Below, one piece after another: positions 18,739 through 54,448 of a stretch of 64,000 nucleotides of DNA. The position numbers and the translations under genes were made by a program. The notes beneath the pieces are model-generated. The model was not told the DNA's origin, ran no database searches, and was given only the letters and a program-made list of their open reading frames with translations. The DNA comes from Rugalucina vietnamica (taxonomy: Eukaryota > Mollusca > Bivalvia > Lucinida > Lucinidae), in contig OZ024876.1 of the NCBI GenBank assembly GCA_964017185.1, positions 28,798,278-28,862,277 on the forward strand, read 5' to 3'. Within the stretch, counting starts at the first letter, position 1. Every line of letters begins with the position of its first letter.

Positions 18739-21700
18739 ATGGAAACCAAACTTTCGATCCTGTATCTATTGGTATGCAATGCTTGCAGATTTGGAATAAA
18801 TGCCCAAACAGGTAAGATGTTTGTTCTTTTCGAGTTTTAACGTAATGTTAGTTCGAACACTTTTATGATTCCAAGTATAAATCTGGAATTTTTAAAATTT
18901 ATTAGGCGTTAAGTATCTTTAATTTCCGCTACGTGAACTCGATCTCTCCTCATTTCTTTCACTGAAGATGCAGTCTGTATTGTTATTAAGATACAAAATC
19001 ATACATTGCATATTATGAACAAGGTATGAAGCTGTTTATTCTCTATCGACAAATATTTTAACAAACTTAACAAAGCAAGAATGAAAAAGCAAAACGGATC
19101 TCCAACCTACCCAACTACCCCTTTTCGGCACGTTTGTGGAAACTCAGCTATTTTAACGCCTCGGAACATAAACCGTTGTATACTGCATATAGTCATTTTG
19201 CAGCAAGTAAGCATTAACTGCTTTAACAAATTTTACAGTCTTTTCTTTTATGCAAAATATTTCCATTATCAGGAAAACATGTCCGTGCAATGAATACCCC
19301 CTTGTACCCCAATTTTATGTAGCAAAATTGGGGTATGCAGGGGTATACCTATCTTTCTTATTTTTGATCCAAAACATAGATTGTTGATACTTGTAAGAAC
19401 CGCCTCAGCGAGGCGATTCTAACGTGTACCTACAATCAATGTTTTGAGCAAACATATTAAAAATATCAAAACTTTTCCAATGAAATTTTTGATTTTTTTA
19501 ATTCTAAAATCATGAATTCTCTGAATATTGCATGGACAAGTTTTCGTAATGATTGTGGCCATTATAACTTGAGTGGCGTCATACGAAAACATACGATTTG
19601 CATCCATGGACATAAAGGTGCAGATCAGATGTCTAACTGATCAGCGTTTGTCTTCACTACAAATTCTTAATTCCATTTCTATTTCAAGTCCAGGGTCACT
19701 ATATTAGGCCGTTTGTGTGGTTTATGGGCCTGGTCTGATTTCCCGGGTCAACGTTTTATATTAACGAAACCCACATTGAATCAAATATTGTAATGCACCA
19801 CCAGTCATCTATACATATGTACAGTGACTTTTTTTTTCAAAATCACTCCTATTGCTCAGCCTCAGTTTTGTATTCATCACTGAGTTAAGACAAGTTCACA
19901 AATCAAATCGATTTTTTGCATTACTTTTTTGCGCGGAAAAGGAATTTTAATCATAATGCTTTGTCTGCATGGTTATCCTCTCCCCATGGACAATTTTTTA
20001 AAAGGTCATCCTCTATTTGGTTGCATCGTCGGAGGCTTATCTATTTAACTTATAAGTTTTAATTCCGATATGTTTTATCATAGTTTTAAAACTGCTTGTT
20101 TCAGGTTCAGGATTTCGACCACCTTCACTTATTCTGGATCCTCCAGCAACTGAAGGGGTTAAAGATACAGCACCTTCGAATACCAAACAAACGGATTTAG
20201 TAACGGAACTCAAAAACATCGTGTCGAACAATGCAGCAACTGCAAATAATATAGACCCAAAGCTTCCAGACTTTACAAACATTTTACAAGACCCCATTAT
20301 AGAAGGAATGGGTCCCATGATGGGACAGGGAAATCCAGGCTCAGAATGGAACTTACCAGCGCAAATCAGTGGAAGTCCTGTGCGGATCTTGACTCCTACA
20401 GATTTAGGAACGTCGGGTAATATCCCAGTAGTTCCCACTGCATCCGGTGCAATGTTTGACAGACCTATTGCACAATCTGGGACTGCAGATGCTCAGGCTC
20501 AGGATACACACGTGATCACAGATATACGGGGAGTAGAACCACCACATCCTACCGTGCCACACGTAGACTTGCCTAATATAAGTGGAAACCCTCACAATTT
20601 CCCAATTCTGCACATTCCGGACCCTGTACCAGGAAATGTGGGTACCCTTGTGACACAAACTGGAGGCATAACTCACCAAAATGACCACGCAGGATTACAT
20701 GTTGATCGAATTGGCGAACATGGTAATAGAGGTCCAGGTCCAGTTATACATAGACCTGATACTGGTGACCACGGAGGAGTTCACGTAGATCCAATCGGTG
20801 TCCATAATAATTTTGGCCCCGGTCCAGTTATACATAGACCTGACACTGGTGATCACGGAGGGGTTCACGTAGATCCAATAGGTGTCCATAATAATTTTGG
20901 CCCCGGTCCAGTTATACATAGACCTGGCACTGGTGATCACGGAGGGGTTCACGTAGATCCAATCGGTGTCCATAATAATAGAGGTCCAGGACCAGTTATA
21001 CATAGACCTGACACTGGTGATCACGGAGGGGTTCACGTAGATCCAATCGGTGTTCATAATAATAGAGGTCCAGGTCCAGTTATACATAGACCTGACACTG
21101 GTGACCACGGAGGGGTTCACGTAGATCCAATCGGTGTTCATAATAATAGAGGTCCAGGTCCAGTTATACATAGACCTGACACTGATCACGGAGGAGTTCA
21201 CGTAGATCCAATCGGTGTCCATAATAATTTTGGCCCCGGTCCAGTTATACATAGACCTGACACTGGTGATCACGGAGGGGTTCACGTAGATCCAATCGGT
21301 GTCCATAATAATAGAGGTCCAGGTCCAGTTATACATAGACCTGACACTGGTGACCACGGAGGGGTTCATGTAGATCCAATCGGTGTTCATAATAATAGAG
21401 GTCCAGGTCCAGTTATACATAGACCCGGCACTGGAGACCACGGAGGGGTTCACGTAGATCCAATCGGTGTTCATAATAATGGAGGTCCAGGTCCAGTTAT
21501 ACATAGACCTGGAACTGGTGACCACGTCGGGGTCCATGTAGATCCAATCGGTGTTCATAATAATGTAGGTCCAGGTCCAGTTATACATAGACCTGACACT
21601 GGTGATCACGGAGGGGTTCACGTAGATCCAATAGGTGTCCATAATAATAGAGGCCCAGGTCCAGTTATACATAGACCTGGCACTGGCGACCACGGAGGGG

Positions 21701-23178
21701 TTCATGTAGATCCAATCGGTGTCCATGATAATAGAGGTCCAGGTCCAGTTATACATAGACCTGGCACTGGTGATCACGGAGGGGTTGACGTAGATCCAAT
21801 CGGTATTCATAATAACAGAGGCCCAGGTCCAGTTATACATAGACCTGGCACTGGTGACCACGGAGGGGTTCACGTAGATCCAATCGGTGTTCATAATAAT
21901 AGAGGTCCAGGTCCAGTTATACATAGACCTGGCACTGGCGACCACGGAGGTACACATGTAGATCCTATCAATCACTTTGATGGTTTTGGTCAGCATGATA
22001 TAACAGGCACAAAACCAGTAATAGATACGACTGGCCCATTTGTACCAACTTCAGACGGTATTACCCACCAGAAGCCTGAATATATTGACCGCTCACCTAG
22101 TTTTGGAATACTTGATAAGATTCTTCCATCTCCTCCGATCAAAGATAGGCCTATTTTTGAAGTACCTATCGGTATAACACACACAAAATTTCCAGCTCAC
22201 CCAGTTTTACCTACGTCCTTTCCTTATCCAAATAAACCAAAAAGTAGAACCCCTTTAGTGTCAATGGTAAAATCTATGGTGGATAAAATGCTTGGTGGCG
22301 TTGTCGGTAAACGCCATAATTTACCAATTAAACCAATAGACCCTCCTATTGATTATCGTAAGAAGTTACACGATCTGCGAAAATTTCCTGATGTGTCGCC
22401 CCATAATGATGTAGGAATTGTTATCCCAAATTCTCCTTTTGCTGATATTCATCTCTTACCACGTAAACCGCCAAAGTTCACAAAACCGAACCATGTTGAA
22501 ACACTCCCAGACGTGGTCAATCTGAAGAAGGGTGAGCACATCGACTTTACTGGCCAGCATGATAGTCCGTTTAATGGACCAGCTATACATACGAAAGATG
22601 GACGTCATATTCCGTTAGACCATTCTCCTAACGATCCTATTGGTCTTCATGATCATATTCTACCAGGTGATATCAGTAAGCCAGGCATTGATCCTTTCGA
22701 ATTTCCAACTGTAATACCGCCAAAACACAATATCAAACTAAACAAACGCCGTGGACGAGGGAAAGGAAATCGTAGAGGCAAAGGGCGCCGTTGGGGCAAA
22801 AGATGGAACCCGAAAAAAGTCGCCGTAATTAAACACGGGCATGTCGATGCTAAGCATGGTGGAATCAACCCTGATAAGATTTACCCTGTTAAGCCTAAAC
22901 CAGAAATTTTGCAAGACTTAGGCCATTCTGCCAAAGGACATTTAGATAAAATCAAAAACAAAGACTATCATGGAAGGACAAAACCCGATATACCAAGCAA
23001 AATCAAAGACATGGTAAAACCCATTAAACCTATTGTGAAGAAAGAACCGAAGCCAAAAACATTTACAATTATTCACATCCCACCAAGGCAAGTTCACCCA
23101 CTGGAAGCTTTAAGGAACGTGGCCCGCCAAGGCATAGGTGCAATAATGAGTGGGTTGTTAAGAAACTTAGGTGGGTAG
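18739..23178 (+). CDS. Gene 1: secreted His/Gly/Pro-rich protein with 15 tandem 28-residue repeats
   Basis: Exon 1 (18739-18811) encodes a signal peptide starting METKLSILYLLVCNAC. A phase-1 GT-AG intron (18812-20104) joins it to exon 2 (20105-23178); the protein is 1048 residues. After a low-complexity N-terminal region and one degenerate core at His177, 15 nearly identical repeats (about 221-647) follow, of the type GVHVDPIGVHNN-x-GPGPVIHRP-GTGDHG. One more core lies at His836 (HIDFTGQHDSPFNGPAIH). A Lys/Arg/Gly/Trp block (about 904-931) and a Lys/Pro-rich tail end the protein. There are no Cys-rich or enzymatic domains. Secretion is well supported. Regular His and Asp suggest metal ion or pH-dependent binding, which is inference. 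The family is not recognised. Gene 2 shares the core and one extra unit. Confidence 0.85.
19270..19551. repeat. MITE family C, complete copy in the intron of gene 1
   Basis: The ends 'ggaaaacatgtccgtgcaat' and the reverse complement 'cgaaaacttgtccatgcaat' form imperfect inverted terminal repeats of about 20 bp. The centre carries 'agaaccgcctcagcgaggcg', which is inverted on itself. Confidence 0.7.
20692..21971 (+). repeat. 84-bp coding minisatellite of gene 1 (15 units)
   Basis: Fifteen head-to-tail units of 84 bp; one (around 21180) is 81 bp and lacks a Gly codon. Units differ at one variable residue after HNN (R, F, G or V) and at D/G before T. The F units (2, 3 and 7) also carry linked synonymous changes (ggccccggtcc), so variation is block-like. 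Confidence 0.9.
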
Positions 23179-23350
23179 GACAATATTCTTTGTGACATGT
23201 GTATATGAAATCCTGTATTTTAAAAGTGACATTTGTAGGCCTTTGTATAGAAACTAAACTAGAAACTAAAATATCAAAATACTATAGATAATGAAGATGC
23301 TAATGATGCTGACATTAATCGGCTGACGTATTTGTGTAAAAGCAAAATTT

Positions 23351-23586
23351 TGAGCCGCCTCATGGGAAAACCAACAATCTGCATATGCGAAACCAAAGGC
23401 GCAGATCAGCTTCGCGGTAACCGCGAAGCTGATCAGCGCCTTTGTTTTCGCTACGCGGATAGTACAATTCCTCTTCTACTTAAATCCGAAATTTCAAGCT
23501 TCTAGCTCTTTTCTGTGCTTGTACAGGCCGGTTTGTGTCGGACCTGTTCGGGAACCACATTGTTGGTTTTCCCACGAGGTGGCTCA
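23351..23586. repeat. MITE family D, complete copy
   Basis: 236 bp from TGAGCC to GGCTCA, with longer imperfect inverted ends (ctcatgggaaaaccaacaat and its counterpart attgttggttttcccacgag). A strong internal palindrome surrounds 'ttcgcggtaaccgcgaa'. It starts 172 bp after the stop codon of gene 1. Confidence 0.8.
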
Positions 23587-24029
23587 AATGATATTGCTTG
23601 CTAGTCCTCATGGTTGTATAGTAAACATGAGGTGTTATTCCCACACGATTATGCTATTGATAAATAATAAGAAATGTTAAATTCGTTTTTCTTGATATAC
23701 CGACAAATACACTGTATTTTATATTTTTATAATAAAATAAATTCATTTGATTTAATTTGTTCCATGTTGAAATAATAATATTGATGCGGTGGGCCAGAAA
23801 AGATAAGCACTGACTACCGATTACTGGTTTACCGCTCAAAAGGTTTGTGAGTTAATTGTACAAGTCACGCCATCCATATCCATACATATAAGAAAAACAA
23901 AAGCAAGATGGGACACAATCAACAAACTTTTCCAGAAAATATCCTTGCTAATAGTGCAGTTTAACCGCATAAATTGCCCGTCATATGCTGTGAAAAATGC
24001 ATTTATCTTCTTACATGATGGTTAATTTT
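23587..24029. other. No gene seen
   Basis: AT-rich. A short SINE-like fragment at about 23820-23890 ('ccatacatataag') matches the families at 10.8 and 26.7 kb. Confidence 0.45.
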
Positions 24030-24145
24030 AGCCGGGCCATGAGAAAACCATCTTTTTGCAAAGGCGAAAACACAGGCGCATATTAGCTTCGCAGTAAATG
24101 CACAGCTGATAGGCGAAAATCCGGTTTTCTCACGATGCGGCTCAA
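24030..24145. repeat. MITE family D, internally deleted copy
   Basis: Keeps both ends ('ccatgagaaaacc', 'ttttctcacgatgcggctca') and part of the internal palindrome, but only about 116 bp in total. Confidence 0.6.
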
Positions 24146-24483
24146 TTACAATATAAAAAAGTCACAAACTATCACATCTGAAGAACCTGTTTTACTTTAG
24201 TTTGAAAAAAAAAAAAAGAAACTGGTCCGTGACACCAAAGGAGTCGTACGTTAGGAAGCTTTACGAAGTTAGGTAGTCAACAGCTGTGGTAATGTCAGAA
24301 CGTTATCCTCTATTTCATGAGATTTCTATGTGGAAGTCCTTTTATGTCTGACGGCCTCATTGGAAAGAGTTCGAAAGGGCCTACTAAACCAGATTTTATG
24401 CTGAATTATAAACATATTCAGAAAAATACAGTTTATTGAAAAGGACCGATCAGCTTAGTAAAATCATAGTACGTTTCAAACAA
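24146..24483. other. No gene seen
   Basis: An A-rich run near 24206. No coding or repeat signal. Confidence 0.5.
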
Positions 24484-24998
24484 AAAGGTACAAGTAGGCA
24501 AAGATCAGGAAAAGGCGCAATCAGAAAAAGATTCCCACTCCAAAAACCGAGGTGGGAAAAAACCAAACTAACAATCAGGTACTTATACCATGAAACATAT
24601 CGTAAGCCGAATGAGCAGCTATTTTCCCAATAGGTGGCCACTCAGTTACCTTAACTTAACTAAAAATATGAAAACATACATAAGGCGCCAACAGCACAAA
24701 AAATTTTAAACACCAAGACATAAAACAAAAAGAACCACTACAGAAGTATCGACTTGGAACGATCAGTAACACAAAGTTACTGGCGGGCTTAAACCGGTTT
24801 TACAGGTACCTAACCTCACCCTCAGCTTCTGCAGTGGTTCACAACATTTAGTTAGTTCTTCGGTCCTCGTGGTGAATCTCTAACTAGTCAATGAATCATC
24901 AAGAACAAACAAATAAATCATGATAAACATCCTGATGAATCAAAAACCAGGACTCACAGATTGAGTAAGCTGCCCGACGATGGAGATCCCTGGGCGCC
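24484..24998 (-). mobile_element. Family A retroelement, 3' end
   Basis: About 515 bp matching the 3' UTR of family A, with the terminus 'gtacaagtaggcaaagatca' at the low-coordinate end. The 5' side is truncated, as expected for target-primed retroposition. Confidence 0.65.
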
Positions 24999-25002
24999 TA
25001 TC

Positions 25003-25022
25003 TATCTACCTATCTATCTATC
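25003..25022 (+). repeat. (ATCT)n microsatellite
   Basis: A short tetranucleotide run between two retroelements. It is probably the 3' tail of the reverse-strand LINE that follows. Confidence 0.6.
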
Positions 25023-25029
25023 TTCATAT

Positions 25030-26370
25030 ACTGAGTCGATCAATTTCTGATCATCATCTCAGGTGTTGGGTGGGTGCTAAATTTTGAATTTAGCAAGATG
25101 GGGAGAACATTCGGGATGGGCCATTAAAACTATTTACAAGAAGCTAAACAGAGGCATACTAAAACGTATACCTCTGAACCCCTGATCTAAACGAGAGCCT
25201 TAAATTCTTCAGCAGTCTTTGATGAGACCACTGAAGAGGGAAGACTATTCCATAAAGGGATAGTCCTCGGGAAAAAAAGAATTCTTCAGAGCATCACTAT
25301 AGGCCATATATCTTGTGTATTGTGAATCATGCGATGCCCTGGTACTTCTTAAATTGGGTGCTGGGGTCAGATATCTATCTTTATCAAGAGACACTGTACC
25401 GGAGTGAATCTTGTAAAAGAAAGTTAAGGAGGACTTCACCCTGCGGTCCTCCAGGGATGGCCACTCAAGTTCGTCCAACATATCGTCAACACTACTCCTG
25501 TTACGCCATCGCCTGCAGGTCCACCTGGCTGCTGTCCTCTGCACTTTCTCCACCTTTTTTGTCTCAGTTTCATTATAGGGATGCCAAATAGGAGCTGCAT
25601 ACTCAAGCTGAGGACGAACCAATGTTTTGTATGCAACCTCCTTTATGTGCCGAGGTGCAAGAGCCAAATTGCGCCGAAGAAAACCCAATGTCTTAGTTGC
25701 TTTACAAGAAATTTCAGAAATATGTTGACCCCATTCTAAGTCGTCAGTGGTATTTGGCGGATCGAACCTGTTCCAGAGTTTGCCGATGTAGAGAGTAGTT
25801 GAAATGTATTTGATTGCCAGGGAGGTGCCGGGTCACCCTCATTGAATGACATTTGGCAACGTTGAATTTCATTTGCCAATCGGTCTCCCATTGTGCAAGG
25901 CTATTCAGGTCTTCTTGTAGAATCTGGCAATCAGTGAGTGAATTAATGTTCCTATACAAAACACAATCGTCTGCAAATAGACGAACAGATGACCTGATAT
26001 TGTCCGGAAGGTCGTTAATAAATATCAAGAAAAGGGCCGGTCCCAAGACCGAACCTTGCGGGACTCCAGATAAGACCGGGACTGGATCTGGGGCTTGACC
26101 ATCTAACACCACTTTTTGATAGCGCTCAGAGAGCCATGAAGCGATCCACTTGTGAGTAGATCCTCAAATCCCGTAGTAGTGCAGCTTGTATAGTAATCTC
26201 TTATGTGGCACCTTATCAAAGGCCTTTGCAAAATCCATGATGATCACATCCGTTTGTCTGTGACCCCGGTTCTGAGCTCGATCCAGGTTACTAACCATGT
26301 CGTGAAAGAACTGAACCAAACTGATTATAAAACAAGAACGGCGACATAAATTAAGCGAGAAATAAAAGTC
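25030..26370 (-). mobile_element. Non-LTR retrotransposon (jockey/CR1-like RT), 5' truncated and broken
   Basis: The minus strand reads 'DVIIMDFAKAFDKVPH' (RT motif A), 'SGVPQGSVLGPALFLIFIND' (motif B), 'VRLFADDCVLYR' (motif C with both Asp) and 'GFLRRNLALAPRHIKEVAYK' (thumb), ending near 25200. Damage: an in-frame TGA just after 'KLHYYGI' (near 26165), and a small deletion near 25740 that shifts frame between 'SAKY' and 'DDLEWGQHIS'. The 5' end is truncated near 26370. Clade assignment is by motif style only. Confidence 0.8.
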
Positions 26371-36654: not shown

Positions 36655-37660
36655 TATAGCAGGGTGCGATATAGGAGTCCAAACTTCCGTCTGTCCGTCC
36701 GTCCATCCGTCCGTTCGTTCGTCCGTCCGTCAACATTTACGTTGAAGTTTGGTTTTCTTTACATTAGTGAGAGCTAGGAACGTGAAACCTTGCAAAGTAA
36801 TTGTCCTTGACATACCCTTCAAGCACGCTCCTTGACCCGGTGCCCTTGACCTATATTTTACGGTCCATTGACTTTGTTCATTTTTATGTCGAAGTTTGGT
36901 TTTCTCTGCATCAGTGATACCTGCGAGTGTGAAACCTTGCAAAGTAATTGTCCTTGACATACCCTTTGACATACCCTTCAAGCATGCACCTTGACCCGGT
37001 GCCCTTGACCTTTATTTTACGGTCCATTGACTTTGTTAATTTTTACGTCGAAGTTTGGTTTTCTCTGCATCAGTGATACCTGCGAGTGTGAAACCTTGCA
37101 TAGTAATTGTCCTTGACATACCCTTCAAGCACGCCCCTTGACTCAGTGCCCTTGACCTATATTTCAAGGTCAACTGACTGTTCATTTTTGTGTCGAAGTT
37201 TGATTTTCTCTGCATCAGTGATAGCTGCAAGTGTGAAACCTTGCATAGTAATTGTCCTTGACATACCCTTCAAGCATGCACCTTGACCCGCTGACCTTGA
37301 CCTATATTTCATGGTCCATTGACTTGTTAATTTTTATGTCAAACTTTGGTTTTCTCTGCACCTGTGATAGCTGCGAGTGTGAAACCTTACATAGTAATTG
37401 TCCTTGACATACCCGTCAAGCATGCACCTTGACCCGCTGACCTTGACCTATATTTCATGGTCCATTGACTTGTTAATTTTTATGTCAAACTGTGGTTTTC
37501 TCTGCACCTGTGATAGCTGTGAGTGTGAAATCTTGCATAGTAAATGTCCTTGACATACCCTTTCAGAACATACCTTGACCTGGTCCCCTCGACCTATATT
37601 TCAGGTTTTTAGTTATTTTGCCCAGTGCAGGTGCGATATTGACCTCCGCGGCGTTCTTGT
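36655..37660. repeat. Interspersed repeat with about five 150-190-bp tandem units
   Basis: Begins 'cgtacctgcttatagcaggg' with a (GTCC)n-rich stretch at 36690-36730 and ends 'gtgcaggtgcgata'. In between, 'gtaattgtccttgacatacc' recurs at about 36800, 36945, 37105, 37252 and 37400, each followed by 'ccttgacc.g.tg.ccttgacc'. Non-coding; minus-strand ORFs are repeat translations. Confidence 0.65.
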
Positions 37661-40801: not shown

Positions 40802-43800
40802 ATGAATTTCTTAAAATTGTTGTTTATTTTGCTACTTTTTGAGCTGGAACTGTCTGGTATACAGTCACAGATCGCAGGTAATATTCATTGTTTTTGCTTT
40901 TAATCTTAGTACTCCTTGGTTTATTAGTCTGATAACGCTTACATACGTGACACCTGATCTTGAAAATCCCATTCAATAGGCCAACAACGATTGCCAAAAA
41001 GTTCCACTGGAAGCATGCACTTTTTAACATAATTGTGACGAATAGACTTGCGGATCATTATCATTTTTGCGAGTCACCTTTCGTTTTAAGGGCTATCAGA
41101 GTGAGTTTTGATTTCATTTTCATTTTTCGATGAAATCACTCTAAACAAAAGTCGAAAAACCCAAATATGACGCCATTTTCGCGGCGTCACGGCTGTGGCT
41201 TTATGTTACGTCTACACTGGACCACGTTCTCACTACGTCCTTACCACGCTCTAAAAATTCAAGAACGTGGCGAGGACGGGGTCAAAATGAAACATTTTCG
41301 GATTTCTAAGTTCCCACTACGTCCTTACTACGTCCCCGACACGTTCTTATTATGTCCGCACCACGTCCTTACTACGTCCTTCACGTTTCCACTACGTCCT
41401 CAATACGCGCCCACCAAGTTCATCCCGTTTCCACTACGTCCTTGCTACGTCCTCACAAAGACCAAGCAGTTCATACCACGCGCGAACTACATTTCCAGTA
41501 CGTTCTTACTGTAAATATATTAATCAGTCGTGTATTAAGAGTCAGATAAGTTGCGAAACAGCTTGAATTGCAGTAAGAAAATGACGGGCGGACAACATTT
41601 CCGGTGGTATTCGCATGAAATTGAAGAATGCCTCTATCCTCAACTCCGCTAGTAGTCGGTCGTAATGCCCATACTGAAGCCTCCTTTCAGCTGATAGCCA
41701 AGGGCGCACCCAACAAGATCTTGCCCTTCTATTCCTCCTCCTGTGAAATAGCACAAGTGCAGCCTGTGCACCAAGTAAGGCATGATGTCCTTGAAGGAGA
41801 GCAAGTTACAAGAGTACTTCTCTGTTCATGTTTCGATTTTGATATGATTTAAATAAAAGCGAAAGCAATTGCTTGAGGGTACGGGACAATTAAAACAAAA
41901 TTAATAAAACGTGAAGGACGTAGTTCGAACCTGGTGTGAACGTGATAAGAACCTACTAAGGACGTGTTAGGAACCGCTAGGACGTGATAAGAACGCAGTG
42001 CAGTCTTCTAGGACGCGGTAAGGACGTACAAGAAGCGTGGTATGGTCTTGTCGAGAACTTGATGGACGTAGCGAGGACGTAGCGAGGACGTAGTAGAAGC
42101 GTAGTGAGGTCTTGATGGTCTGCAACAAATTTGCATCGCGTCCACGAAGACCGCACTACGTTTGCGCCACGTTCTTTCTACGTCCTACAAGTTCCTACTA
42201 CGTCCTTACCACGTCCTTACTACGTCCTTACTGCGTTCTAATTCCACCCCGTCCTCGCCACGTTTCTTTTGAGCATGTTCAAAATTTGACCAAGACCTCC
42301 GCGTCCATCAAGACCTCACTACGTCCTTACTACGTTCCTACCACGTCCTACAAGACCGTACCACGTCCTCACTACGTCCTTAATTTTTTTAGGACGTAGT
42401 AAGGACGTAGTGAGAACGTGGCCCGGTGTAGACGTAACATTAACGTTTGTCTTATGCCGCCACAGAAATAGGTTTAACGCTAATAATGCAGCTGGTTTGT
42501 GTCCTGTGACGGCCATTACTGAAAAGTCGCGCCGTACATCATTCATAGTGCAGATTTTATTTTCCTTTTGGTCCTTTGAGAAAAAAGTACAAATAGGCAA
42601 TGATCAGGAAATGGCGCAATCAGAAAGAAATTCCCACTCCATAAACCGAGGGGTGAGAAAAACCTAAAATGACACTTAAGTACTTATATCATGAAAACAT
42701 GCCGTAAGCCGAGTGAGCAGCTATTCCCCAATAGGCGGCCACTCAGTTACCCGAACTGAACTAAAAATATGAAAACGTACATAAGGCTCAAACAGCACAA
42801 AAATTCGACTCCAAAACACAAAACAATTAGAACCACAACAGAAGTATCGCCTTGGAACGACCAGTAATATAAAATTACTGAGATCAGCGAGGATATTCAG
42901 AGAAATCAAAAAATGATTATCGGTTAAGATTTATTTTCTAACCAATGCTTATATACCTTTGGTTGCATTTCGATACAATACTTGACCAAGCAAGTAATTG
43001 TGACAACAGTCGCCTCGTTAGAAAACAAACAATGTGTTTTTGAACAGGCCCGACACAAACCAAGCTTTACAAGCTAGAGGCTGGAAAGTTAAGATTTAGA
43101 AACTGCGAATCTGATCTGCCCCTTTGTATTTGCCGATGGAAAATGTTGGCTTTCTCATTACGCGGTTCATATATGAACTATTCCACATTGGTCCCAACAG
43201 ATCACGTTAACTTTGTTTCAGACCAGACGTCATCTACCGGCCATGGAACCGGAAGCAACTTGCCAAATTTAGGTGTCCTTCTGAATGAGCCTGTGGTTAT
43301 GGGCGTCGGAGATAAACCCGTAACGGATATAAGTTCTGCAGCAGTAACTCATCTACAACCCGGTGCCCACATTGACCATTTCGGGGAACATGGCCATACA
43401 GGGAAAGATCCGGTCATACACACGCCGGATGGCCAATTTCATCAGATAGAGTCTCCCTTTGGAGCGACTCATCCTAAACCTGACGCTCACCAGCACGGTC
43501 ATTTACATACCACTGATAATCTAGCCGGTGCACATGTTGTGCATACAGCAGAGCTTCCAGGGGTGGTCAATTTAGATACAGGAGCTCACATAGACTTTGC
43601 GAAAGAACATAATAATCCCTTTGATTGCGCCGTGATGCACACGCCCGATGGACAACGCACCCCTATAAACTGCCCGCAGAGTAAACCCGCCCCTATTACA
43701 GGCACGGGTCACCATCAGTTCCAAGACACAACCGTACTCATAGACACTCATGTTCCTAACAAAGGTACAATTATTGCTGATCCACATCCACATTCTGTGC

Positions 43801-45479
43801 CAACACTTCCCGGTGTGACACATTTAGACACAGGCGATCATATTGACTTCCATGGTGAACATAATAATTTTTCGGGGAAAACGGTAATACACAAGAAGAA
43901 TGGTCGTCGTATTCCAATGGACGCGGGTCTTGGACAAGGAAATACAAACACAGGTGTTCCCGATCTACCTCCTGGAGCCCATGTTGATTTCCATGGGCAA
44001 CACAATAACCCCCATAAAGATCCAGTCGTCCATTTACCGTCTGGAAAACATGTTCATTTAAGCACAGACAAGGGGCATGGAAGTCACACAACAGTCGTAG
44101 ATACCGGTCTTCCGATAAAAGATGTACCACATATCGACATCGGTGGCGTAGATCCGCATATGGGGCACATAGATAAACTACCAGGAGTTGCCGAACTACC
44201 TCCAGGGGCACATATTGATTTCCATGGGCAGCATAATAACGAACATAAAGATCCTGTCGTCCATTTACCGTCCGGAAAACATGTTCATTTAAGCACAGAC
44301 AAGGGGCATGGAAGTCACACAACAGTCGTAGATACCGGTCTTCCGATAAAAGATGTACCACATATCGACATCGGTGGCGTAGATCCGCATATGGGTCACG
44401 TGGATAAACTACCAGGAGTTGCTGAACTACCTCCAGGGGCACATATTGATTTCCATGGGCAGCATAATAACGAACATAAAGATCCTGTCGTCCATTTACC
44501 GTCCGGAAAACATGTACATTTAAGCACAGACAAGGGGCATGCAAGTCATACAACAGTCGTGGACCCCGGTCCTCTTATTAATGATGTACCACATATCGAT
44601 ATCGGCGGCGTAGATCCGCATATGGGCCACGTGGATAAACTACCAGGAGTAGCTGAACTACCTCCTGGGGTCATGGACTCTGGTCTTCCGATTAAAGATG
44701 TTCCGCATATGGGAGGCATAGATCAATATGCTGGGCGCGTTGAGAACGTTCCTGCTGATCAGAACATTGTCGGGAGAGTCGATCCTGGAATCAACCCGGA
44801 CTTTCCGGTGGCACCTTTTCCTGAGACACATCTGCAAGACGCTTTTCCTCGGATGGAAGTACCGCTTGCACATGAACAATCTGATTTCCCACCCCTTAAA
44901 ACACCGGATTCTCATGCCAAACCAGAATTTCCACTGGCTGGTAGGAACCCAGCAATCTTAAAACAGGATATTTTACCGGTCGATGCTATTCCGGATTTGT
45001 TCGGTGCGGAAACAAGCTTTGTCCCTCGGACTGAAGACATTCCTCCCTCGGAAATAGCTCCAGAAGTACCCATAGCAATCAAAACAGCTCCCCGTAAACG
45101 TACATTAGGCAAAATTATTTCTAAGCAAATTGAGAGAAGACGACAACAACAAATCGAGAAACTTGAAAGGTATGGGTCAAGGCCTGGAGGAAAACTGCGT
45201 GGTCCTTCTCGGAAACCGGGTGGTCTACCTCCTCTAAGGCCGCGTCCACCAGTAAAGCCGCATCGAAAACAAATTCTTGGTGGCTTAGTCAAGAACATGT
45301 TCCGCCAAATGTATGGTCGGAGGGGCCCTGGAAAGAAACGGGGCCATGTTAAACCTGTTCGAAGAGGACGCGGGCGGGGTCGACCCGTTGTTAGGAGACG
45401 TCGTCGCCGATTTGGACCTCCTAGACCTAGGCAGAGAAGAAGAGGTGGTCGCCGGTTCAGAAGATTTAGCCGAGATTAA
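40802..45479 (+). CDS. Gene 2: secreted His-rich repeat protein with a long Arg-rich tail
   Basis: Exon 1 (40802-40877) encodes a signal peptide starting MNFLKLLFILLLFELEL. A phase-1 intron (40878-43221) joins it to exon 2 (43222-45479); the protein is 777 residues. In-frame upstream ATGs exist from 40699, but the one at 40802 gives a clean signal peptide. Three single core units (first at His75) are followed by three 77-residue repeats (about 270-500) with the core HIDFHGQHNNEHKDPVVH, then HLS-TDKGH and a VPHIDIGGVDPHMGH segment, and a truncated fourth. The C-terminal 130 residues are extremely basic, with runs such as RRGRGRGRPVVRRRRRRF near the end. The core aligns without gaps to genes 1 and 3. 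Extracellular location is well supported; function is unknown. Binding of metal by the His/Asp core and of polyanions by the tail is inference. Confidence 0.85.
41204..42439. mobile_element. PIF/Harbinger-type transposon remnant in the intron of gene 2
   Basis: Inverted terminal repeats of about 45 bp with three differences start TGTTACGTCTACAC and are flanked by a 3-bp TTA duplication (41201-41203 and 42440-42442), as for PIF/Harbinger. Subterminal arrays of 'ctacgtcctta' variants face inward from both sides. The middle encodes a short transposase-like piece on the minus strand. It is 1236 bp long and defective. Confidence 0.8.
41560..41800 (-). pseudogene. Harbinger transposase N-terminal fragment
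   Basis: The minus strand reads FHRRRNRRARSCWVRPWL, then QYGHYDRLLAELRIE and FFNFMRIPPEML. These are characteristic of the region just before the DDE domain in animal Harbinger transposases. The DDE catalytic part is absent. Confidence 0.65.
42585..42880 (-). mobile_element. Family A retroelement 3' end, in the intron of gene 2
   Basis: Matches the family A 3' UTR, with terminus 'gtacaaataggcaatgatca' at the low end. Truncated near 42880. Confidence 0.65.
43006..43169. repeat. MITE family D, internally deleted, just before exon 2 of gene 2
   Basis: Contains 'gaacaggcccgacacaaacc' and 'gaatctgatctgcccctttg' and ends 'ctttctcattacgcggttca'. It ends about 50 bp before the 3' splice site. The first residues of a longer open frame here are MITE-derived, not protein. 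Confidence 0.65.
43954..44660 (+). repeat. 231-bp coding repeats of gene 2
   Basis: Units start at about 43954, 44187, 44418 and 44649 (the last truncated); the last two intervals are exactly 231 bp. The second and third are almost identical over most of their length. Confidence 0.9.
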
Positions 45480-47044: not shown

Positions 47045-47045
47045 T

Positions 47046-47845: not shown

Positions 47846-48227
47846 ATATTAAGAATGAAAATCACTCCAGTGCCCCTAACAATTACAATGGACTCACCCA
47901 AATGATAACGATGGGTAAATCCATTCGTCAAAAATTAGTTAATGGGTATCAAGTATTTTAACTGACATGTACAAGGCTTTCACCAGCAATGCCAACCTAG
48001 TGTCCATTTTGCAGTAAATGTTCAAGATCATGATGCTCATTGAGGGGCGACATTCTTTTGTAACTTCTGTCTGGCATTTTGCATATTACTCGTATATCGT
48101 GATCTGAGTTAGAGAATGCCGAAAGGTGGAGAAGTATAAGAGTTTGCTGAAAGGCGAAATCCATCTGAAATATCCGAAGATTTTGAATCCCCTTCGGATT
48201 CCAGTGCATATTTAAAGCTTATATTTC
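47846..48227. other. No gene seen
   Basis: Nothing recognised. Confidence 0.45.
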
Positions 48228-48365
48228 ATGCCGCACCATTGCTCTGAATCTGGGTGGACAGCCAAACTTGGGCATGATTTTTCCAGTGCCCGTATCGAAA
48301 GCTTTGGTGAGGTCGACAAACGTCATGTAAAGATCTACATTCTGTTCTTGGCACTTCTCCGGAAA
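48228..48365 (-). pseudogene. Family B reverse transcriptase fragment
   Basis: The minus strand reads CQEQNVDLYMTFVDLTKAFDT, then KIMPKFGCPPRFRAMV: RT motif A region, the same as 6569-6700. Only about 46 codons remain. Confidence 0.75.
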
Positions 48366-48684
48366 AAATAAAGGCTCAAACACTTTAAGTATACCGTACA
48401 CAAAATGTTATGTGTCGTGATTTTGAGCCAAAACCACAAAATTAAAAAAAAGCTGTAGCAATTACAATTTGCAGAATTACGGAATGACTACCATGTTTCA
48501 TTAATGTCATTGACTGGACAAAAGATGCATGCTTTCGGATTGAAAATATTGACTTTGTTGTTGATTTTATTGCAGAGGAAATGGCTATATTTTGATCCGG
48601 AAGTTCTCAATAATTGTAGGAAATGCGCAACGGATAAAATTAAGAATAAAATGTAGACTTAAAATTAATGACATATTTGCAATA
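48366..48684. other. No gene seen
   Basis: AT-rich; nothing recognised. Confidence 0.45.
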
Positions 48685-48702
48685 AATAAATAAACAAACA
48701 AA

Positions 48703-48737
<35 letters not shown>

Positions 48738-48740
48738 AAA
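48685..48740 (+). repeat. (AAAT)n microsatellite
   Basis: About 14 tetranucleotide units, with two AAAC variants near the start. Confidence 0.9.
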
Positions 48741-48921
48741 CATGCAGATTCATAGGATATTGACGAAAATGCCGATTTTCAAAATAACCATTATTTTATC
48801 AAAATCAGGTTTATTTAGAAACAAAGCCCTCCTACTTGAATAAAAATGAATATACAGTAGTCAATTTGTATGCACCAAAACAAACATTCAAAAGTTTGCC
48901 TTTCTTTTTGTACTGACAATC

Positions 48922-49640
48922 TTAACTTGACACTTAGGTACTTATACCAAGAAAACACATAGTAAGCCGAGTGAGCAGCTATTTCCCAACAGGCGGCCAT
49001 TCAGTTACCCGAACTTAACTAAAATATGAAAACGTACATATGGCTCAAACAGCACAATTCGACTTTAAATCACAAAACAAGTAGAACCACAACAGAAGTA
49101 GTATAAAATTCCTAGAGGGTCGGGGTCGGGTGGGGGGGCTTAAACCGGTTTTACATGACCCTAACCTCACCCTCATCTTCTGCAGTAACATTTAGTTAGT
49201 TGTTCGGTCCTCGTGGTGAATCTCTTACAAGTCAATGACTCCGACGATGGAGATCCCTGGGCGCCCAATAACTTACTGAAAACTGGAGCAAAAGAAAAAA
49301 AAAAAAAAAAAACACCAATTGGCTTTATGTCGGGGCCATCATAGAGTCTGACGCCCGACCCATCGTTGTGCAATTAAAGGAGGCAGCGTAGTTATCAACC
49401 ATGATTGGGTTAAAAACATTTAAGTTATACCCTATACATGTACGTCTGTAACGTGTAATGAGTTTTCTGAATTGAAAAGAAAAATCATTCCTTCCTAGTT
49501 TCTTAAATTTTTAAACCAAGTCACCATAAAATTCTGGTTCCGAAAAGCCCTCACGTAGAAATTCTGGTTCCGAAATGCCCTCACGTAAAAGCGTCTTTAG
49601 CCCAACATTAAATTTGGTAATCAATTTTTATAGTGTCTGT
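48922..49640 (-). mobile_element. Family A retroelement, 3' part
   Basis: 3' UTR and C-terminal coding end of family A on the minus strand. A 24-bp segment, 'attctggttccgaaa.gccctcacgta', is duplicated in tandem near 49531-49588. A run of A lies near 49294-49311. Confidence 0.65.
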
Positions 49641-49679
49641 TTTTTAGTAGTGGCTACATTATAATATCGGTAGATAGTA

Positions 49680-49915
<236 letters not shown>

Positions 49916-50404
49916 TTTCTTTATTTAAAGAGGGTGACTAAGCAAAATATGTAAAAGTGATTTAGCAAAAATATTTGAATTCCGTATATTATTCTCCTTG
50001 TTCCTTGTTTTATGCATTTGATATTTTGTCAGACCACAGCTTAATTACCAATCGGTCATATTTTTTTTGCAAAACGTAAAAATAGAAGGATGTTTTTAAA
50101 TCTTTGGGCAATTATCACGACTATGCACGGCTAAACTCTACGGAGCTTGGCAATGTTGTTTAGTTGTTTTGCAAGGGCGGGACAATTCAGATTCTTTCAC
50201 GTTTAAAATAGGTTGCAGCTACTTTAACGTTAACTTTCTTTATAAACCGCAATACTTAGAACAACGTTTCAAACATGTTTAATAACCGTCTAACTGACAA
50301 TTTAGAAATTTCTCAAGATTCGCCAAATATTTGTCTTGATATGGATTTCATGTCAAATAATTATAGAGAAATGACATTAGATTGTGGTTACAAACTAAAA
50401 CATA
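49916..50404. other. No gene seen
   Basis: Immediate 5' region before the MITE upstream of gene 3. Nothing recognised. Confidence 0.45.
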
Positions 50405-50631
50405 TGAGCCGGCGCATGGGAAAACCAACAATCTGCATAGGCGAAAACAAAGGCGCAGGTCAGCTTCGCAGTAACTTCGAGCGCCTTTGTTTTCGCTACA
50501 CTGATAGTACAATTCCTCTACTTACTAAATCCATAATTTCCAGCCTCTAACCATCTTCTGTGACTGTACAGCCCGGTTTGTGTCGGACCTGGTCGGAACC
50601 CAAATTGTAGGTTTTCTCATGTTCGGGCTCA
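50405..50631. repeat. MITE family D directly upstream of gene 3
   Basis: Starts TGAGCCGGCGCATGGG and ends 'ttttctcatgttcgggctca', 227 bp. It ends 61 bp before the chosen ATG of gene 3, so it may contribute 5' UTR or promoter sequence. Confidence 0.75.
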
Positions 50632-50692
50632 TATCAAATTTGAGGAAAGAGAAAATAACAATACATGTAGACAGAAATGACAATGAAACAAT

Positions 50693-53600
50693 ATGGAAAT
50701 ATCCCTGAAATACAAAGAGATGGTTTTGGTATGCTTGCTGATATTCAACATTCCGTGTATTATTGCGATCCACCGCGCCGGTAAGTAATATTCTCATTTA
50801 TTTTAACCCATTTAAACGTAGATATTTTGGCTTTTCCGGCATAAACCATATGCCGTATGTGTTTGGAACAAAACGTAGACTTTCATGTAGATCCTTTTCA
50901 AAAGAGCTAACTATTTAGAAGAAAGGCACATTGCCCCAAATTGCAATTCAGGGGTTGGTAACTCAAATCCATCTTAATCTTAAGATCAACTTACGACCAA
51001 CTTAAGTCACTGTATCTCTTAGGGATTACGGTGAATAACTGAAAAGGATCTTCAGTTACGGTGACAACCTAACAGCATCGTAACTTTGGCGTCATCTTAT
51101 CTTACAAAGTGGCACCTTTCATTTGAAAAAAGTTCCGACAGAGTAACTGGAATATCAAGGGTGTAAATTTCAAAGTGGCAGTCTTAAGTATGTCGTAAGT
51201 AGGGGAACATGCGATGCCTTCGAGTTACTGGGTCCAGTGGTTGGTTCAAAATTCATTTTATGTGCATGTTTACAAACGTTGTCATAACTGTTCTTGTTTT
51301 ACGCATTTCTTTGAATAATAGCCAAACTGTCATAGAAAGATTTTCTTGGTAAAATTACACTTAATATTAAAAGCTGACATTTTTTTCCGATTACAGAAAG
51401 GTACAAGTAGGCAATGATCAGGAAAAGGCGCAACCAGTTAGAAACTCCCACTCCAAAAACCGAAGTGGAGAAAACTAAATTGACAATAAGATACTTGCAC
51501 TAAGAAAATACATTGTAAGCCGAGTGAGCAGCTCAGAATCAGAATAGTTTACTGGTGAAACGTCAAACTGACAATACCACACCAGCTATTTCCCAATAGG
51601 CGGCCACTCAGTTACCTACACCTAACTAAAATATAAAAACGCACATAAGGCGCAAACAGCACAAAAAATCAACACCAAAACATAAAACAACAAGAACCAC
51701 AACAGAAGTATCGCCTTGGACGATCAGTAATACAAAATTACTGGCGGGCTTAAAATAGTTTTACATGGCCAAAACCTCACCCTCAGCTTCTGCTGTGGTT
51801 CATAACACATAGTTGTTCGGTCCTCGTGGTGAATCTCTAACAAGTCAATGAATCATCAAGGACAAACATATAAATCATGATAACCACCATGATGAATCAA
51901 AAACGAGGACTCACAGATTCAGTAACTGCCCGACGATGGAAATCCCTGGGCGCCCAATAACTTACTGAAAGTTCGGAGCAAAAGACCAGTTGAACCCCGG
52001 TGGGTTAAGCAACAGACAAGAAGCTCCGGCCCCAACCAACTAAAATGAATAGCTTTAAGTCGAGGCCATCATAGAGTCTGACGCCCGACCCACCGGCGTG
52101 CAATTAAAGAAGGCAGCGTGGTTATCAACCATGATTGGGTTAAAAACTAAGCATGCAGACTGCTGATTTTTCTGAACTGAAAAGAAAAATCATTTCTGCC
52201 TATAAATTTCTTTAATTTATAAACCAAGTCACCATAAAATTGTGGTTCCGAAAGGTCATCACGTAAAAGCGTCTTTAGCCCAACATTAAATTTGGAAATC
52301 TATTCATAGTGTCTGCGATAAAATTTAGAAAATGTTTTTCGAAGTTTATGATACCGATAGCCCTGCTGGAGAAGTTTGGCTGTTAAACATTTATTTCGCG
52401 CGTTGAAGTCTGCAACATGATTGCAACAGACTCGAAGTTGATTAACACTTTTATCCCCCAAAAAGACCACACAAGCAGTTCATTTTGGCCGTATTTACAT
52501 CACTTTATTTAATGAAAAGCCGTATACTATCATGGTAACCATCTCACAGCAGTTTGATGCTGTAATATAGTATTTGCGGAATTGTTCTCCAGTACAACAA
52601 ATACCGTTAAGTTCATCAATTTACGATGACAAAATAAATCTTACATGAACACTCTGAGTACTACATTTTGTTACCCCACCCATTTTCTACTATTGAAACC
52701 ACTGATACCAGACTAGATCAGCCGGCAACATTGCTTCACTTTCGTGACAGCTTAGCATTGGTTACAATCAAACTAATGTCGGGCTGATCATGGATTTTGT
52801 AATGAATATTAAAAGTTGCCGTCTACATAGTAACCTAATTGGAAAATCATACGTAACCAGAATGTAGATAGGGGCAGCAATTTGACAACTGGACTGTAGT
52901 TTGATTCCTTCATTTTAATGCTATGTTGTGTTCATTTCAGCTGATACACGACAGGGTGGGATAGTCCCTTCCACCAGAGAGACAAACACCTTTAAAATCC
53001 AGGCTCAGCTGAAAGATCTCGGCATAGTATTACCTCAGGCCAATGTTTCAAATGTACCACCGCTGATTTTAAATCAGCCGCATAGTCGGCCTGTCAGTCA
53101 GCTCAACATTCAACACAACCAGCCTTTGATTGCAACCGCCACGCGACCATTTAGACCACCACGTATTAAAACACAACCACAGCATAATGATGTACGGACC
53201 ACCGATTCTGGAACACAAGTCCTTCTTTTATACCCGAAGTCAGGAAATCTTAACAATACCCATTTTCCAGATATTGTTGGACAAAGTGATATTCATAGAC
53301 ATGGTCTTGCTCCGCCGGCAAATACAGGTCAAGGTCATATCAACTATCATTCTTCACATGTACATCTACCGGGCGAAGATGGGAACAATTCCACCCGACC
53401 AGTTATCCACAGAGTTAGACAAGGTGAACATCACCATAGCCACGCCAATCACCATTCAACACATGTAGATTTACCAGGTGTGCACGGGAACAACTCCACC
53501 AGACCAATAATACATAGAACAACACACAGCGAACACGGACACAGATCTGGACTTACAGGAACTGCACAGCCAGATCACAGACATGTAAAGTACCATTCCA

Positions 53601-54448
53601 CACACGTAGATTTACCGGGAGAGCACGGGAACAACTCCACTAGACCGATAATCCACCGAATACCCCAAGGTGGACAAGGTCATGGTGGCCATCGACATGG
53701 ACATCCGCACTCGCACCCGACAAACCATCACGAAACACACGTTGATCTACCGGGTGAGCACGGAAATCTTTCACCACATGCTGTTATACATAGAGTTGGA
53801 AGTGCGCATAGGCACGTTAATCAGCCGGTACAGGCAATGCGTCCTGCCGATCAGTCCGGCCCTGTTATTCATGGACTTGGTCATGATATATCACGTAATG
53901 TTGCTTCCTTGAGTGCTCCATACAGCGTCAGTGACGGGACTTTGGGAAACCGGCCCGTTCCTGGTACAGGGGGCACAGTGCAGTCGGCACATTACATTAA
54001 CGTTCCAACAGAAACCGCCGAAACCGTTAGTACTCAACACCAGCACCAGCCTGTTGTTCAAGCCCAAACGTCTCAACTGGGAATACTGCCATCTTATGTA
54101 GAAGGTGGCCTGCCGATGCCATCTGAGTTTGCAACAACACCTACATCGCCCACTATGATTCCGCCAATGCCCGATGGTATGGCGGTGCCATACATGGGAG
54201 AGGCCGGAGTACCGTTCGGGTTGGGTGGTGGACCTATAGCTCCATTTCATATGCCATTTAGACCATTAAGGCCTTTCGGTCCTTTAGCTCACCTCCCACC
54301 GTTCTTGCGTCGGCGCATTCGGTTTAGGCGGCGAATGCGCCGCCGCATGCGAAGACTTCGAAGGCTAAACTTCATGCGACAACATGGATTAATTGGACCA
54401 TTTGAGCCGCACGTGGGACTACCTGTTCCAATGTTTCCTATGTTATAA
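50693..54448 (+). CDS. Gene 3: secreted His-rich repeat protein with N-glycosylation sequons in the repeat
   Basis: Exon 1 (50693-50780) encodes a signal peptide containing MVLVCLLIFNIPCIIAI, with a strong donor (g|gtaagt). A phase-1 intron (50781-52940) leads to exon 2 (52941-54448); the protein is 531 residues. An in-frame stop lies just 5' of the chosen ATG; a second ATG 9 codons later would also work. Four core units (first at His169) of the type HVDLPGEHGNNSTRPIIH are separated by His-rich linkers of variable length. NNST gives sequons in three of the four. The rest of the middle region is Pro/Gly/Thr-rich. An Arg/Met block (about 484-506, RRRIRFRRRMRRRMRRLRR) precedes a short hydrophobic end. 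The exon plan and core match genes 1 and 2. Extracellular; function unknown. Confidence 0.83.
51398..52445 (-). mobile_element. Family A retroelement in the intron of gene 3
   Basis: About 1.05 kb on the minus strand, from the coding region ('KFYRRHYE', 'SKFNVGLKTLL' in broken frames) to the 3' UTR terminus. A 55-bp foreign piece interrupts it near 51533-51590. Confidence 0.7.
53344..53810 (+). repeat. Coding repeats of gene 3 (four units)
   Basis: Four units with 'acatgtagatttaccgg' at similar positions and His-rich spacers of unequal length. Less homogeneous than the arrays of genes 1 and 2. Confidence 0.85.

What the first reader, a model, noticed from the sequence alone, without database searches (positions are those of the whole stretch)
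18739..54448. Undescribed family of secreted repeat proteins sharing an ungapped 18-residue His/Asp core
Three genes encode repeats that differ in length and flanks but align without a single gap over 18 positions: H-[VI]-D-x2-G-x-H-[NG]-N-x4-P-[VI]-[VI]-H. Counted by eye there are about 17 cores in gene 1, 6 in gene 2 and 4 in gene 3. Degenerate singles (gene 1 His177 and His836; gene 2 His75) keep the spacing even where side residues changed, which argues for structural constraint. I know of no named domain with this pattern. Three His and one Asp at fixed spacing suggest metal coordination; that part is inference.
Basis: partly seen in the sequence, partly recalled or inferred. Interest (0 to 1): 0.92.

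Follow-up and report, generated by a model that had tools for sequence, protein, structure and literature searches.

The report
Three secreted histidine-aspartate repeat proteins
Three neighbouring genes in a shellfish-like genome appear to make secreted proteins built from many copies of one conserved, unnamed histidine-and-aspartate unit with a basic tail, most likely a structural material that can bind metal, although neither the material nor the metal has been shown.

Summary
Three two-exon genes (18739-23178, 40802-45479, 50720-54448) carry 17 + 6 + 4 = 27 ungapped 18-residue units, H-[VI]-D-x2-G-x-H-[NG]-N-x4-P-[VI]-[VI]-H. Profiles trained on two genes find the third at 220, 49.5 and 43 bits; shuffles reach at most 9.3. 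Within genes pN/pS is 0.16-0.30: purifying selection. Protein searches of the 1.09-Gb genome found no further member.

"No named domain" needs qualifying. Gene-2-type units and the last gene 1 unit align in one register with the C-terminal hairpin of bacterial DUF3465 (PF11948): profile-profile 91.7 %, 0 of 300 permuted controls as good; Pfam 26.4 bits for gene 2 (cut-off 25) but no stretch alone. About a quarter of that domain matches; the gene 1 array and gene 3 do not. It is not a member; descent or convergence is open.

Best reading: secreted, metal-linkable structural matrix proteins (His/Asp units plus basic tail) in a local cluster of five two-exon secreted genes, two with other repeats. 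Tissue, metal and fold are untested. AlphaFold2 gave low-confidence beta structure, and it is reported to over-predict beta-solenoids for repeats.

The parts
18739..18811 (+). gene 1 exon 1: signal-peptide-like METKLSILYLLVCNACRFGINAQT
   Evidence: splice donor GTAAGA, phase 1; hydrophobic core; in-frame stop upstream
20105..23178 (+). gene 1 exon 2 (spliced protein 1048 aa, 9.1 % His, no Cys beyond residue 25)
20560..20613 (+). gene 1 degenerate core (ORF residue 169; spliced His177); weak on its own
   Evidence: 4.2 bits
20698..21924 (+). gene 1 array: 15 cores, 28-residue period (one of 27)
22537..22590 (+). gene 1 solitary core (ORF residue 828; spliced His836); the gene 1 unit nearest to gene 2 and to DUF3465
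22744..22818 (+). gene 1 Lys/Arg-rich stretch KRRGRGKGNRRGKGRRWGKRWNPKK in the basic C-terminal part
40802..40877 (+). gene 2 exon 1: signal-peptide-like MNFLKLLFILLLFELELSGIQSQIA
43222..45479 (+). gene 2 exon 2 (spliced protein 777 aa)
43368..43421 (+). gene 2 core 1 (ORF residue 109; spliced His75)
43587..43640 (+). gene 2 core 2
43839..43892 (+). gene 2 core 3 (best single match of the DUF3465 profile, 7.4 bits)
43980..44033 (+). gene 2 core 4
44211..44264 (+). gene 2 core 5 (77-residue repeat)
44442..44495 (+). gene 2 core 6 (77-residue repeat)
45096..45476 (+). gene 2 Arg/Lys-rich C-terminal tail (start approximate)
50720..50780 (+). gene 3 exon 1: signal-peptide-like MVLVCLLIFNIPCIIAIHRA; an in-frame ATG lies 27 bases upstream at 50693 (adds MEISLKYKE)
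52941..54448 (+). gene 3 exon 2 (spliced protein 522 aa, 10.5 % His)
53357..53410 (+). gene 3 core 1 (Asp3 to His and His8 to Asp); weak on its own
   Evidence: 3.9 bits
53462..53515 (+). gene 3 core 2
53603..53656 (+). gene 3 core 3
53738..53791 (+). gene 3 core 4
54299..54373 (+). gene 3 Arg-rich tail PFLRRRIRFRRRMRRRMRRLRRLNF
57981..58047 (-). neighbour gene, exon 1: signal-peptide-like MKSVCVSLVVVNLVLLCSGQQT; same two-exon phase-1 plan
55876..56804 (-). neighbour gene, exon 2: Gly/Ser-rich protein with YGRR near both ends, no core

Best explanation
The three genes are tandem paralogues that encode secreted structural matrix proteins. Each has a signal peptide, a Gly/Pro/His-rich middle made of one conserved His/Asp unit repeated 4 to 17 times, and a basic Arg/Lys tail. 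The likely mechanism: each unit forms a short beta-hairpin that presents three histidines and one aspartate at fixed spacing; metal ions or protons bridge His/Asp sites within and between chains; the basic tail binds an acidic partner (acidic matrix proteins, polysaccharide or mineral). The product would be a cross-linked extracellular material such as shell matrix, periostracum, ligament, byssus or cement. SHOWN by sequence: the units, their spacing, selective constraint, signal-peptide-like first exons, the tails and the local clustering. INFERRED: secretion itself, hairpin, metal, cross-linking, tissue.
For: Units and spacing. Common ancestry of the three genes (leave-one-out 220.3, 49.5 and 43.0 bits against shuffle maxima of 5.3, 5.8 and 7.9; all five non-self hits of the gene 1 unit-828 region in the 1.09-Gb genome are in gene 2, best E 1.6e-6; the only other place hit by the gene 3 repeat region is gene 1, weakly, E 0.85). 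Purifying selection: pN/pS 0.25 in gene 1 cores, 0.30 in gene 2, 0.16 in gene 3. Same exon plan, 9.1-10.5 % His, 0-2 Cys beyond residue 25; K+R against D+E in the last 100 residues 21 v 8, 39 v 1 and 17 v 3. Two further genes with the same two-exon phase-1 plan lie within the same 77.4 kb, one with YPKKPIIPP-type repeats, as expected of a structural-protein cluster. A mussel shell study describes uncharacterised shell proteins with short tandem repeats and low complexity, and His-rich shell proteins for which calcium binding is suggested (PMC4517812, passages seen).
Against: No expression, proteome or metal data were available, and no signal-peptide predictor was run. The His/Asp sites could equally act through pH or hydrogen bonds. 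The gene 1 linkers are as constrained as the cores (0.18 v 0.25), so constraint there is not special to the His/Asp positions. The gene 1 tail is only moderately basic. AlphaFold2 gave low confidence for gene 2 (mean pLDDT 44.4) and gene 1 (58.5; the other four models 50.1, 47.4, 42.7 and 28.8); no significant PDB fold match. In gene 3 core 1 the Asp and one His are exchanged, which fits metal ligands but also drift.
Confidence: 0.55

Rival explanations
1. The unit descends from a DUF3465-like domain: its last hairpin was captured from a bacterium or shared with an unsampled animal domain, then duplicated in tandem, shortened to 28 residues in gene 1 and enriched in His. The gene-2-type unit would be the ancestral form. 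(A statement on origin; compatible with the best explanation of function.)
For: All 6 gene 2 units and gene 1 unit 828 align in the same register with '[29 protein letters not shown]' of a profile from 80 bacterial loci. Profile-profile 91.7 %, E 7.9e-7, 31 % identity over 35 columns; 0 of 300 column-permuted controls reach it (best 34 %), and single units give 3.7 to 75.9 %, highest for unit 828. Pfam 26.4 bits for gene 2 (cut-off 25). None of the reported controls among 2000 unit-permuted (767 reported) and 2000 shuffled (889 reported) versions of gene 2 reaches its score.
Against: Unit scores on the home-made profile run only from -1.1 to 7.4 bits. 34 of 124 Pfam positions match, 27-36 of 134. 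No single stretch of gene 2 passes alone in the full protein; none of 15 single units, neither of two 77-residue gene 2 units, nor the gene 1 unit-828 region or the gene 3 repeat region hits DUF3465 in Pfam. On the near-identical gene 2 repeats nine other, unrelated Pfam families also appear, the next at E 7e-4 against 1.2e-4 for DUF3465, so summed repeats inflate scores. All units pooled give 8.3 %, the gene 1 array and gene 3 0.2 % each. HWTHHD is absent. No complete DUF3465 was found in this genome (best 17.1 bits, E 3.5, none over the cut-off). The family was chosen as best Pfam hit, so the pairwise E-value must be multiplied by about 25,000 families (about 0.02).
Confidence: 0.22
2. Soluble metal-carrier or metal-storage protein of plasma or extrapallial fluid, working like the bivalve histidine-rich glycoproteins and pernin/dominin.
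For: 9.1-10.5 % His, signal-peptide-like first exon. Bivalve plasma proteins such as pernin and cavortin bind multiple metal ions, and a Mytilus histidine-rich glycoprotein is reported to bind several metal classes (PMC6530089: a passage and a reference title seen).
Against: No C1q or Sod_Cu domain in the Pfam scan at E <= 1; no similarity to pieces of the tandem SOD domains of this genome (1.2 % and 0.5 %). Basic tails and neighbours with structural repeats fit a matrix better.
Confidence: 0.12
3. The arrays fold into a beta-solenoid or amyloid-like fibre with His ladders along its faces.
For: The AF2 model of 8 gene 1 units shows three strands per 28 residues (VHV, IGVHNN, VIH), pTM 0.55. 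The weak PDB neighbours include SufB/SufD and adhesins (beta-helical, recalled) and the functional amyloids FapC and CsgA.
Against: Mean pLDDT 58.5 for the best of five models; 0 of 63 PDB matches has E <= 0.001. [quoted passage not shown] Unit spacing in genes 2 and 3 (35 to 84 residues) does not suit a continuous solenoid.
Confidence: 0.1
4. Chance: independent low-complexity His/Gly/Pro repeats that only look alike.
For: All three proteins are rich in H, G, P; the best of 500 shuffles per gene reached 9, 8 and 7 of 11 core positions, and two of the 27 units are not significant alone.
Against: Leave-one-gene-out scores are 5 to 42 times the best of 1000 shuffles and reversed sequences score below zero; shared exon plan; genome-wide cross-hits fall on each other.
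Confidence: 0.02

Closest known systems
DUF3465 (Pfam PF11948), bacterial
   Same: One hairpin, in one register: P-x-[VI]-x2-L-x2-G-x-x-[VI]-[DE]-F-x-G-[EQ]-[YH] ... V-[IV]-H.
   Different: DUF3465 is a single domain of about 124 positions with HWTHHD; here about a quarter of it matches, repeated up to 17 times, in an animal. The gene 1 array and gene 3 do not match.
Mytilus histidine-rich shell proteins / extrapallial (EP) protein
   Same: His-rich (14.3 %), calcium binding suggested (PMC4517812, passages seen).
   Different: Those carry a C-terminal C1q domain (PMC4517812); none found here.
Pernin / cavortin / dominin (CuZn-SOD plasma proteins)
   Same: Secreted bivalve proteins that bind metal (PMC6530089, passages seen).
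   Different: SOD domains; none here. A separate 679-residue frame with SOD domains lies elsewhere in this genome.
Basic, repetitive mollusc matrix proteins such as shematrins and KRMPs; squid beak histidine-rich proteins (all recalled, not tested)
   Same: Secreted, low complexity, basic tail or His-rich, structural use.
   Different: Different repeat motifs; no H-[VI]-D-x2-G-x-H-[NG]-N unit recalled in them.

Membership tests
DUF3465 (PF11948) | Whole-protein score over the Pfam cut-off (25 bits) | tested here: inconclusive
   Gene 2 26.4 bits, no stretch alone; genes 1 and 3 no DUF3465 hit; parts of gene 2 19.8 and 22.4 bits, single 77-residue units none
DUF3465 (PF11948) | Match to most of the 124-position domain | tested here: not met
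   Profile positions 69-102 of 124; 27-36 of 134 positions of a home-made profile
DUF3465 (PF11948) | HWTHHD after the hairpin (seen in the profile consensus) | tested here: not met
   After the last core His the 27 units read R, I, T, L or K, never W
Histidine-rich extrapallial protein of Mytilus | C-terminal C1q domain | tested here: not met
   No C1q in Pfam scan at E <= 1
Pernin / dominin | CuZn-SOD domains | tested here: not met
   No Sod_Cu hit at E <= 1; hhalign 1.2 % and 0.5 %
Shell / byssus matrix protein | Signal peptide | tested here: inconclusive
   Hydrophobic first exons (best 9-residue mean 2.7, 2.91 and 3.5) with GT-AG phase-1 introns; no signal-peptide predictor was run
Shell / byssus matrix protein | Present in the mineralised or fibrous material, or expressed in the tissue that makes it | not testable with these tools
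   No proteome or transcriptome available
Metal-binding His/Asp repeat | Measured metal binding | not testable with these tools
   Only sequence: His1, His8, His18 and Asp3 kept in 26, 25, 27 and 26 of 27 units

The most novel reading that the evidence does not exclude
A single hairpin of a DUF3465-like domain was lifted out of its fold, enriched in His and Asp and multiplied into a new extracellular metal-linking repeat, making a lineage-specific family of structural proteins inside a five-gene matrix cluster.
Probability: 0.18. Interest if true: 0.68.

Novelty: new variant of a known kind. Interest (0 to 1): 0.5.

Why it matters
Animals make shells, threads and cements from fast-evolving repeat proteins whose sequences rarely show ancestry. 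Here one compact unit survives with fixed spacing across three paralogues with very different arrays, so the functional part can be named, searched for and tested as a 20-36-residue peptide. If it binds metal it gives a small natural module for metal-linked protein materials; if the DUF3465 link is real it shows one route by which structural repeats arise.

Tried and rejected
Cu/Zn-SOD origin of the core (my idea: H-V-x3-G ... H at the same 17-residue distance): hhalign against three pieces of one SOD frame gave 1.2 % and 0.5 %, rejected. Further family members in +-100 kb: best outside hit 9.3 bits, E 0.35, in six-frame ORFs of 25 aa or more of 264 kb, so none detected. Further members in the genome: full proteins and segments searched; the three other hits (E 3e-4 to 8e-4, at query residues 1-71, mostly before exon 2) and the one (E 0.8) all carry stops. 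These are single-protein searches with only the best candidates scored, so distant members can be missed. Viral contigs: 29 pattern matches, 0 relatives. Prokaryote genomes were not scanned with the core itself: the profile had no stretch conserved enough. PDB fold matches: 0 of 63 and 0 of 96 at E <= 0.001. A 231-residue repeat piece of gene 2 had three NCBIfam rows far under their cut-offs (best E 0.0059). Literature: the unit as letters found no paper (1 string; 6 strings). Six further paper searches on His-rich, shell, byssus or repeat terms listed 3, 3, 1, 1, 0 and 10 (of 29) papers; no title or abstract start in those lists describes this repeat, and I saw passages of only two of these papers. 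DUF3465 is named in 2 papers, not opened. Most subscription papers and all supplements are outside that library. A shared N-terminal motif of four cluster genes was derived from those same genes, and its 'FP' in the fifth gene lies in an intron, so I do not rely on it.
Full report
CHECK OF THE OBSERVATION. A degenerate DNA form of the core occurs 21 times in the window, on the + strand only, and never in 100 dinucleotide shuffles. The three long frames are 20056-23178, 43044-45479 and 52919-54448. The near-invariant positions are His1 (26 of 27), [VI]2 (27), Asp3 (26), Gly6 (25), His8 (25), Asn10 (25), Pro15 (24) and His18 (27); 18 of the 27 units are distinct. Joining a first exon to each frame gives three two-exon genes with GT-AG phase-1 introns of 1293, 2344 and 2160 bases; gene 3 has a second in-frame ATG 27 bases upstream.

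IS IT MORE THAN CHANCE. A profile trained on genes 2 and 3 finds gene 1 at 220.3 bits; one trained on 1 and 3 finds gene 2 at 49.5; one trained on 1 and 2 finds gene 3 at 43.0. The best of 1000 shuffles per gene scored 5.3, 5.8 and 7.9 on the whole sequence and 9.3, 8.9 and 8.6 on the best single domain, where the real genes have 29.9, 22.6 and 21.3; reversed sequences scored below zero (995, 994 and 955 shuffles were reported at the threshold). Two units, gene 1 residue 169 (4.2 bits) and gene 3 residue 147 (3.9), are not significant alone. In the 1.09-Gb genome an 82-residue piece around gene 1 unit 828 has six hits: itself and five places in gene 2, best E 1.6e-6; a gene 2 piece finds gene 1 at E 3.5e-4. 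The gene 3 repeat region has two hits: itself and gene 1, the latter weak (E 0.85). Between units, pN/pS is 0.25 (gene 1 cores), 0.18 (gene 1 linkers), 0.30 (gene 2, six units), 0.16 (gene 3) and 0.35 across genes, with synonymous differences near saturation among the older units (pS 0.91 in gene 2, 0.82 in gene 3). So the units are old in genes 2 and 3, recent in the gene 1 array, and held by purifying selection. The gene 1 linker is as constrained as its core, so the constraint there is not specific to the 18 positions.

ANATOMY. The spliced proteins have 1048, 777 and 522 residues. Beyond residue 25 they carry 9.1, 9.3 and 10.5 % His, 10-15 % Gly, 12-14 % Pro and 0, 2 and 0 Cys. Middle parts are rich in His with D/E. 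The C-terminal parts are basic: K+R against D+E in the last 100 residues is 21 v 8, 39 v 1 and 17 v 3, with runs such as RRRRRRF in gene 2 and RRRMRRRMRRLRR in gene 3. Gene 1 repeats with a 28-residue period (84 bases, 92 % matches), gene 2 partly with a 77-residue period (231 bases), gene 3 with irregular spacing of 35, 47 and 45 residues. In gene 2 and in gene 1 unit 828 the unit is longer, about 36 residues: V-x2-L-x2-G-x-H-[IV]-D ... H-x3-G-[QRK].

SURROUNDINGS. The ORF at 55876-56922 (-) holds the second exon of another gene with the same plan (exon 1 57981-58047). A fifth such gene lies about 30 kb beyond the window (second exon from 95021 down to about 93628 and first exon 96096-96168 in extended window coordinates), with YPKKPIIPP-type repeats and GYGRR motifs. 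These two share LEGSTI[SL]G[RM]P[LI]QGG; no core was found in either. A carboxylesterase ORF is at 13730-15346 and a reverse-transcriptase fragment at 25744-26163. Within +-100 kb no other core was found (best outside hit E 0.35).

TAXON. Not given. The own genome has 1.09 Gb in 47 contigs. A 679-residue frame with four SOD matches, three over the cut-off (read), recalls pernin, which has three SOD domains (PMC6530089, passage seen). A mollusc is likely, not proved.

COMPARISON WITH KNOWN FAMILIES. Gene 1 has no Pfam hit and gene 3 only a weak one (IL3, E 0.2); gene 2 hits DUF3465 at E 7e-6, 26.4 bits against a cut-off of 25, but with no stretch passing by itself. Of 15 single units (of 27) none hits DUF3465. 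The divergent gene 2 part (units 1-3) has one stretch at 19.8 bits in all, two 77-residue units have none, and on the near-identical repeats nine unrelated families appear beside DUF3465, the next at E 7e-4 against 1.2e-4: summing over repeats inflates such scores. I built a profile from 80 bacterial loci (of 546 found). It aligns all six gene 2 units and gene 1 unit 828 in one register, at -1.1 to 7.4 bits each. Among 2000 unit-permuted and 2000 shuffled versions of gene 2 none of those reported (767 and 889) reaches the observed total of 15.6 bits; the best had 5.2 and 7.5. Profile-profile comparison gives 91.7 % and E 7.9e-7 for the gene-2-type units, 8.3 % for all units, and 0.2 % each for the gene 1 array and gene 3. 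Of 300 column-permuted controls none reaches it, the best being 34 %; single units give 54.4, 8.1, 3.7, 73.0, 54.9, 56.0 (gene 2) and 75.9 % (unit 828). Corrected for having picked the best of about 25,000 Pfam families, the E-value is about 0.02. So the hairpin resemblance is real as a pattern, but it covers about a quarter of DUF3465 and lacks its HWTHHD; no full domain was found and membership is not met. No sequence relative of the DUF3465 query or of the proteins was found in the PDB set.

STRUCTURE. AlphaFold2 on two gene 2 units gave mean pLDDT 44.4, with three short strands per unit (HVD or HID, VVH, HVH) in stretches of pLDDT 51-59. On eight gene 1 units it gave 58.5 and pTM 0.55, three strands per 28 residues (VHV, IGVHNN, VIH), the other four models being at 50.1, 47.4, 42.7 and 28.8. 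PDB searches gave nothing at E <= 0.001 (0 of 63, 0 of 96). [quoted passage not shown]

MECHANISM. Most likely (0.55) these are structural proteins of an extracellular material. Shown: signal-peptide-like exons, conserved His/Asp spacing under selection, basic tails, clustering with other such genes of the same exon plan. Inferred: short hairpins that present His1, Asp3, His8 and His18 to metal ions or to each other, and tails that bind acidic partners. Rivals are a DUF3465-derived unit (a statement on origin, compatible with the same function), a soluble metal carrier, a solenoid or amyloid fibre, and chance (contradicted).

VERDICT. Novel as a repeat unit, ordinary as a kind (secreted, low-complexity, His-rich structural protein).

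Noticed in passing
55876-56804 (-) with exon 1 57981-58047: Gly/Ser-rich protein gene with the same signal-exon/phase-1 plan and YGRR near both ends; shares LEGSTI[SL]G[RM]P[LI]QGG with a gene about 30 kb beyond the window.
   Followed up: partly
G000:C8:28891905-28893298 (L033/L034; exon 1 at window-extended 96096-96168): Lys/Pro/Tyr-rich protein with YPKKPIIPP-type repeats and GYGRR motifs, adhesive- or matrix-like; a 409-residue frame on contig C3 matches its repeats weakly (E 1.3e-6; 362 of 487 residues used as query).
   Followed up: partly
G000:C8:62702527-62704300 (L121): A 679-residue open frame with four Cu/Zn-SOD matches, three over the Pfam cut-off, like the bivalve plasma protein pernin.
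   Followed up: partly
window 53357-53410: Gene 3 core 1 carries a reciprocal Asp/His exchange at positions 3 and 8, keeping one of each in those two places.
   Followed up: no
56805-56922 (-): The first 39 residues of the listed ORF lie in the intron and match a dispersed repeat: 125 matches at E <= 10, itself included, nearly all at residues 1-45.
   Followed up: no
36736-37603: Tandem array of about 146-base units (5 copies, 88 % matches) between genes 1 and 2.
   Followed up: no
41134-42667: The intron of gene 2 holds ACGTCCTTACT-type repeats in both orientations that open spurious ORFs on the + strand.
   Followed up: no
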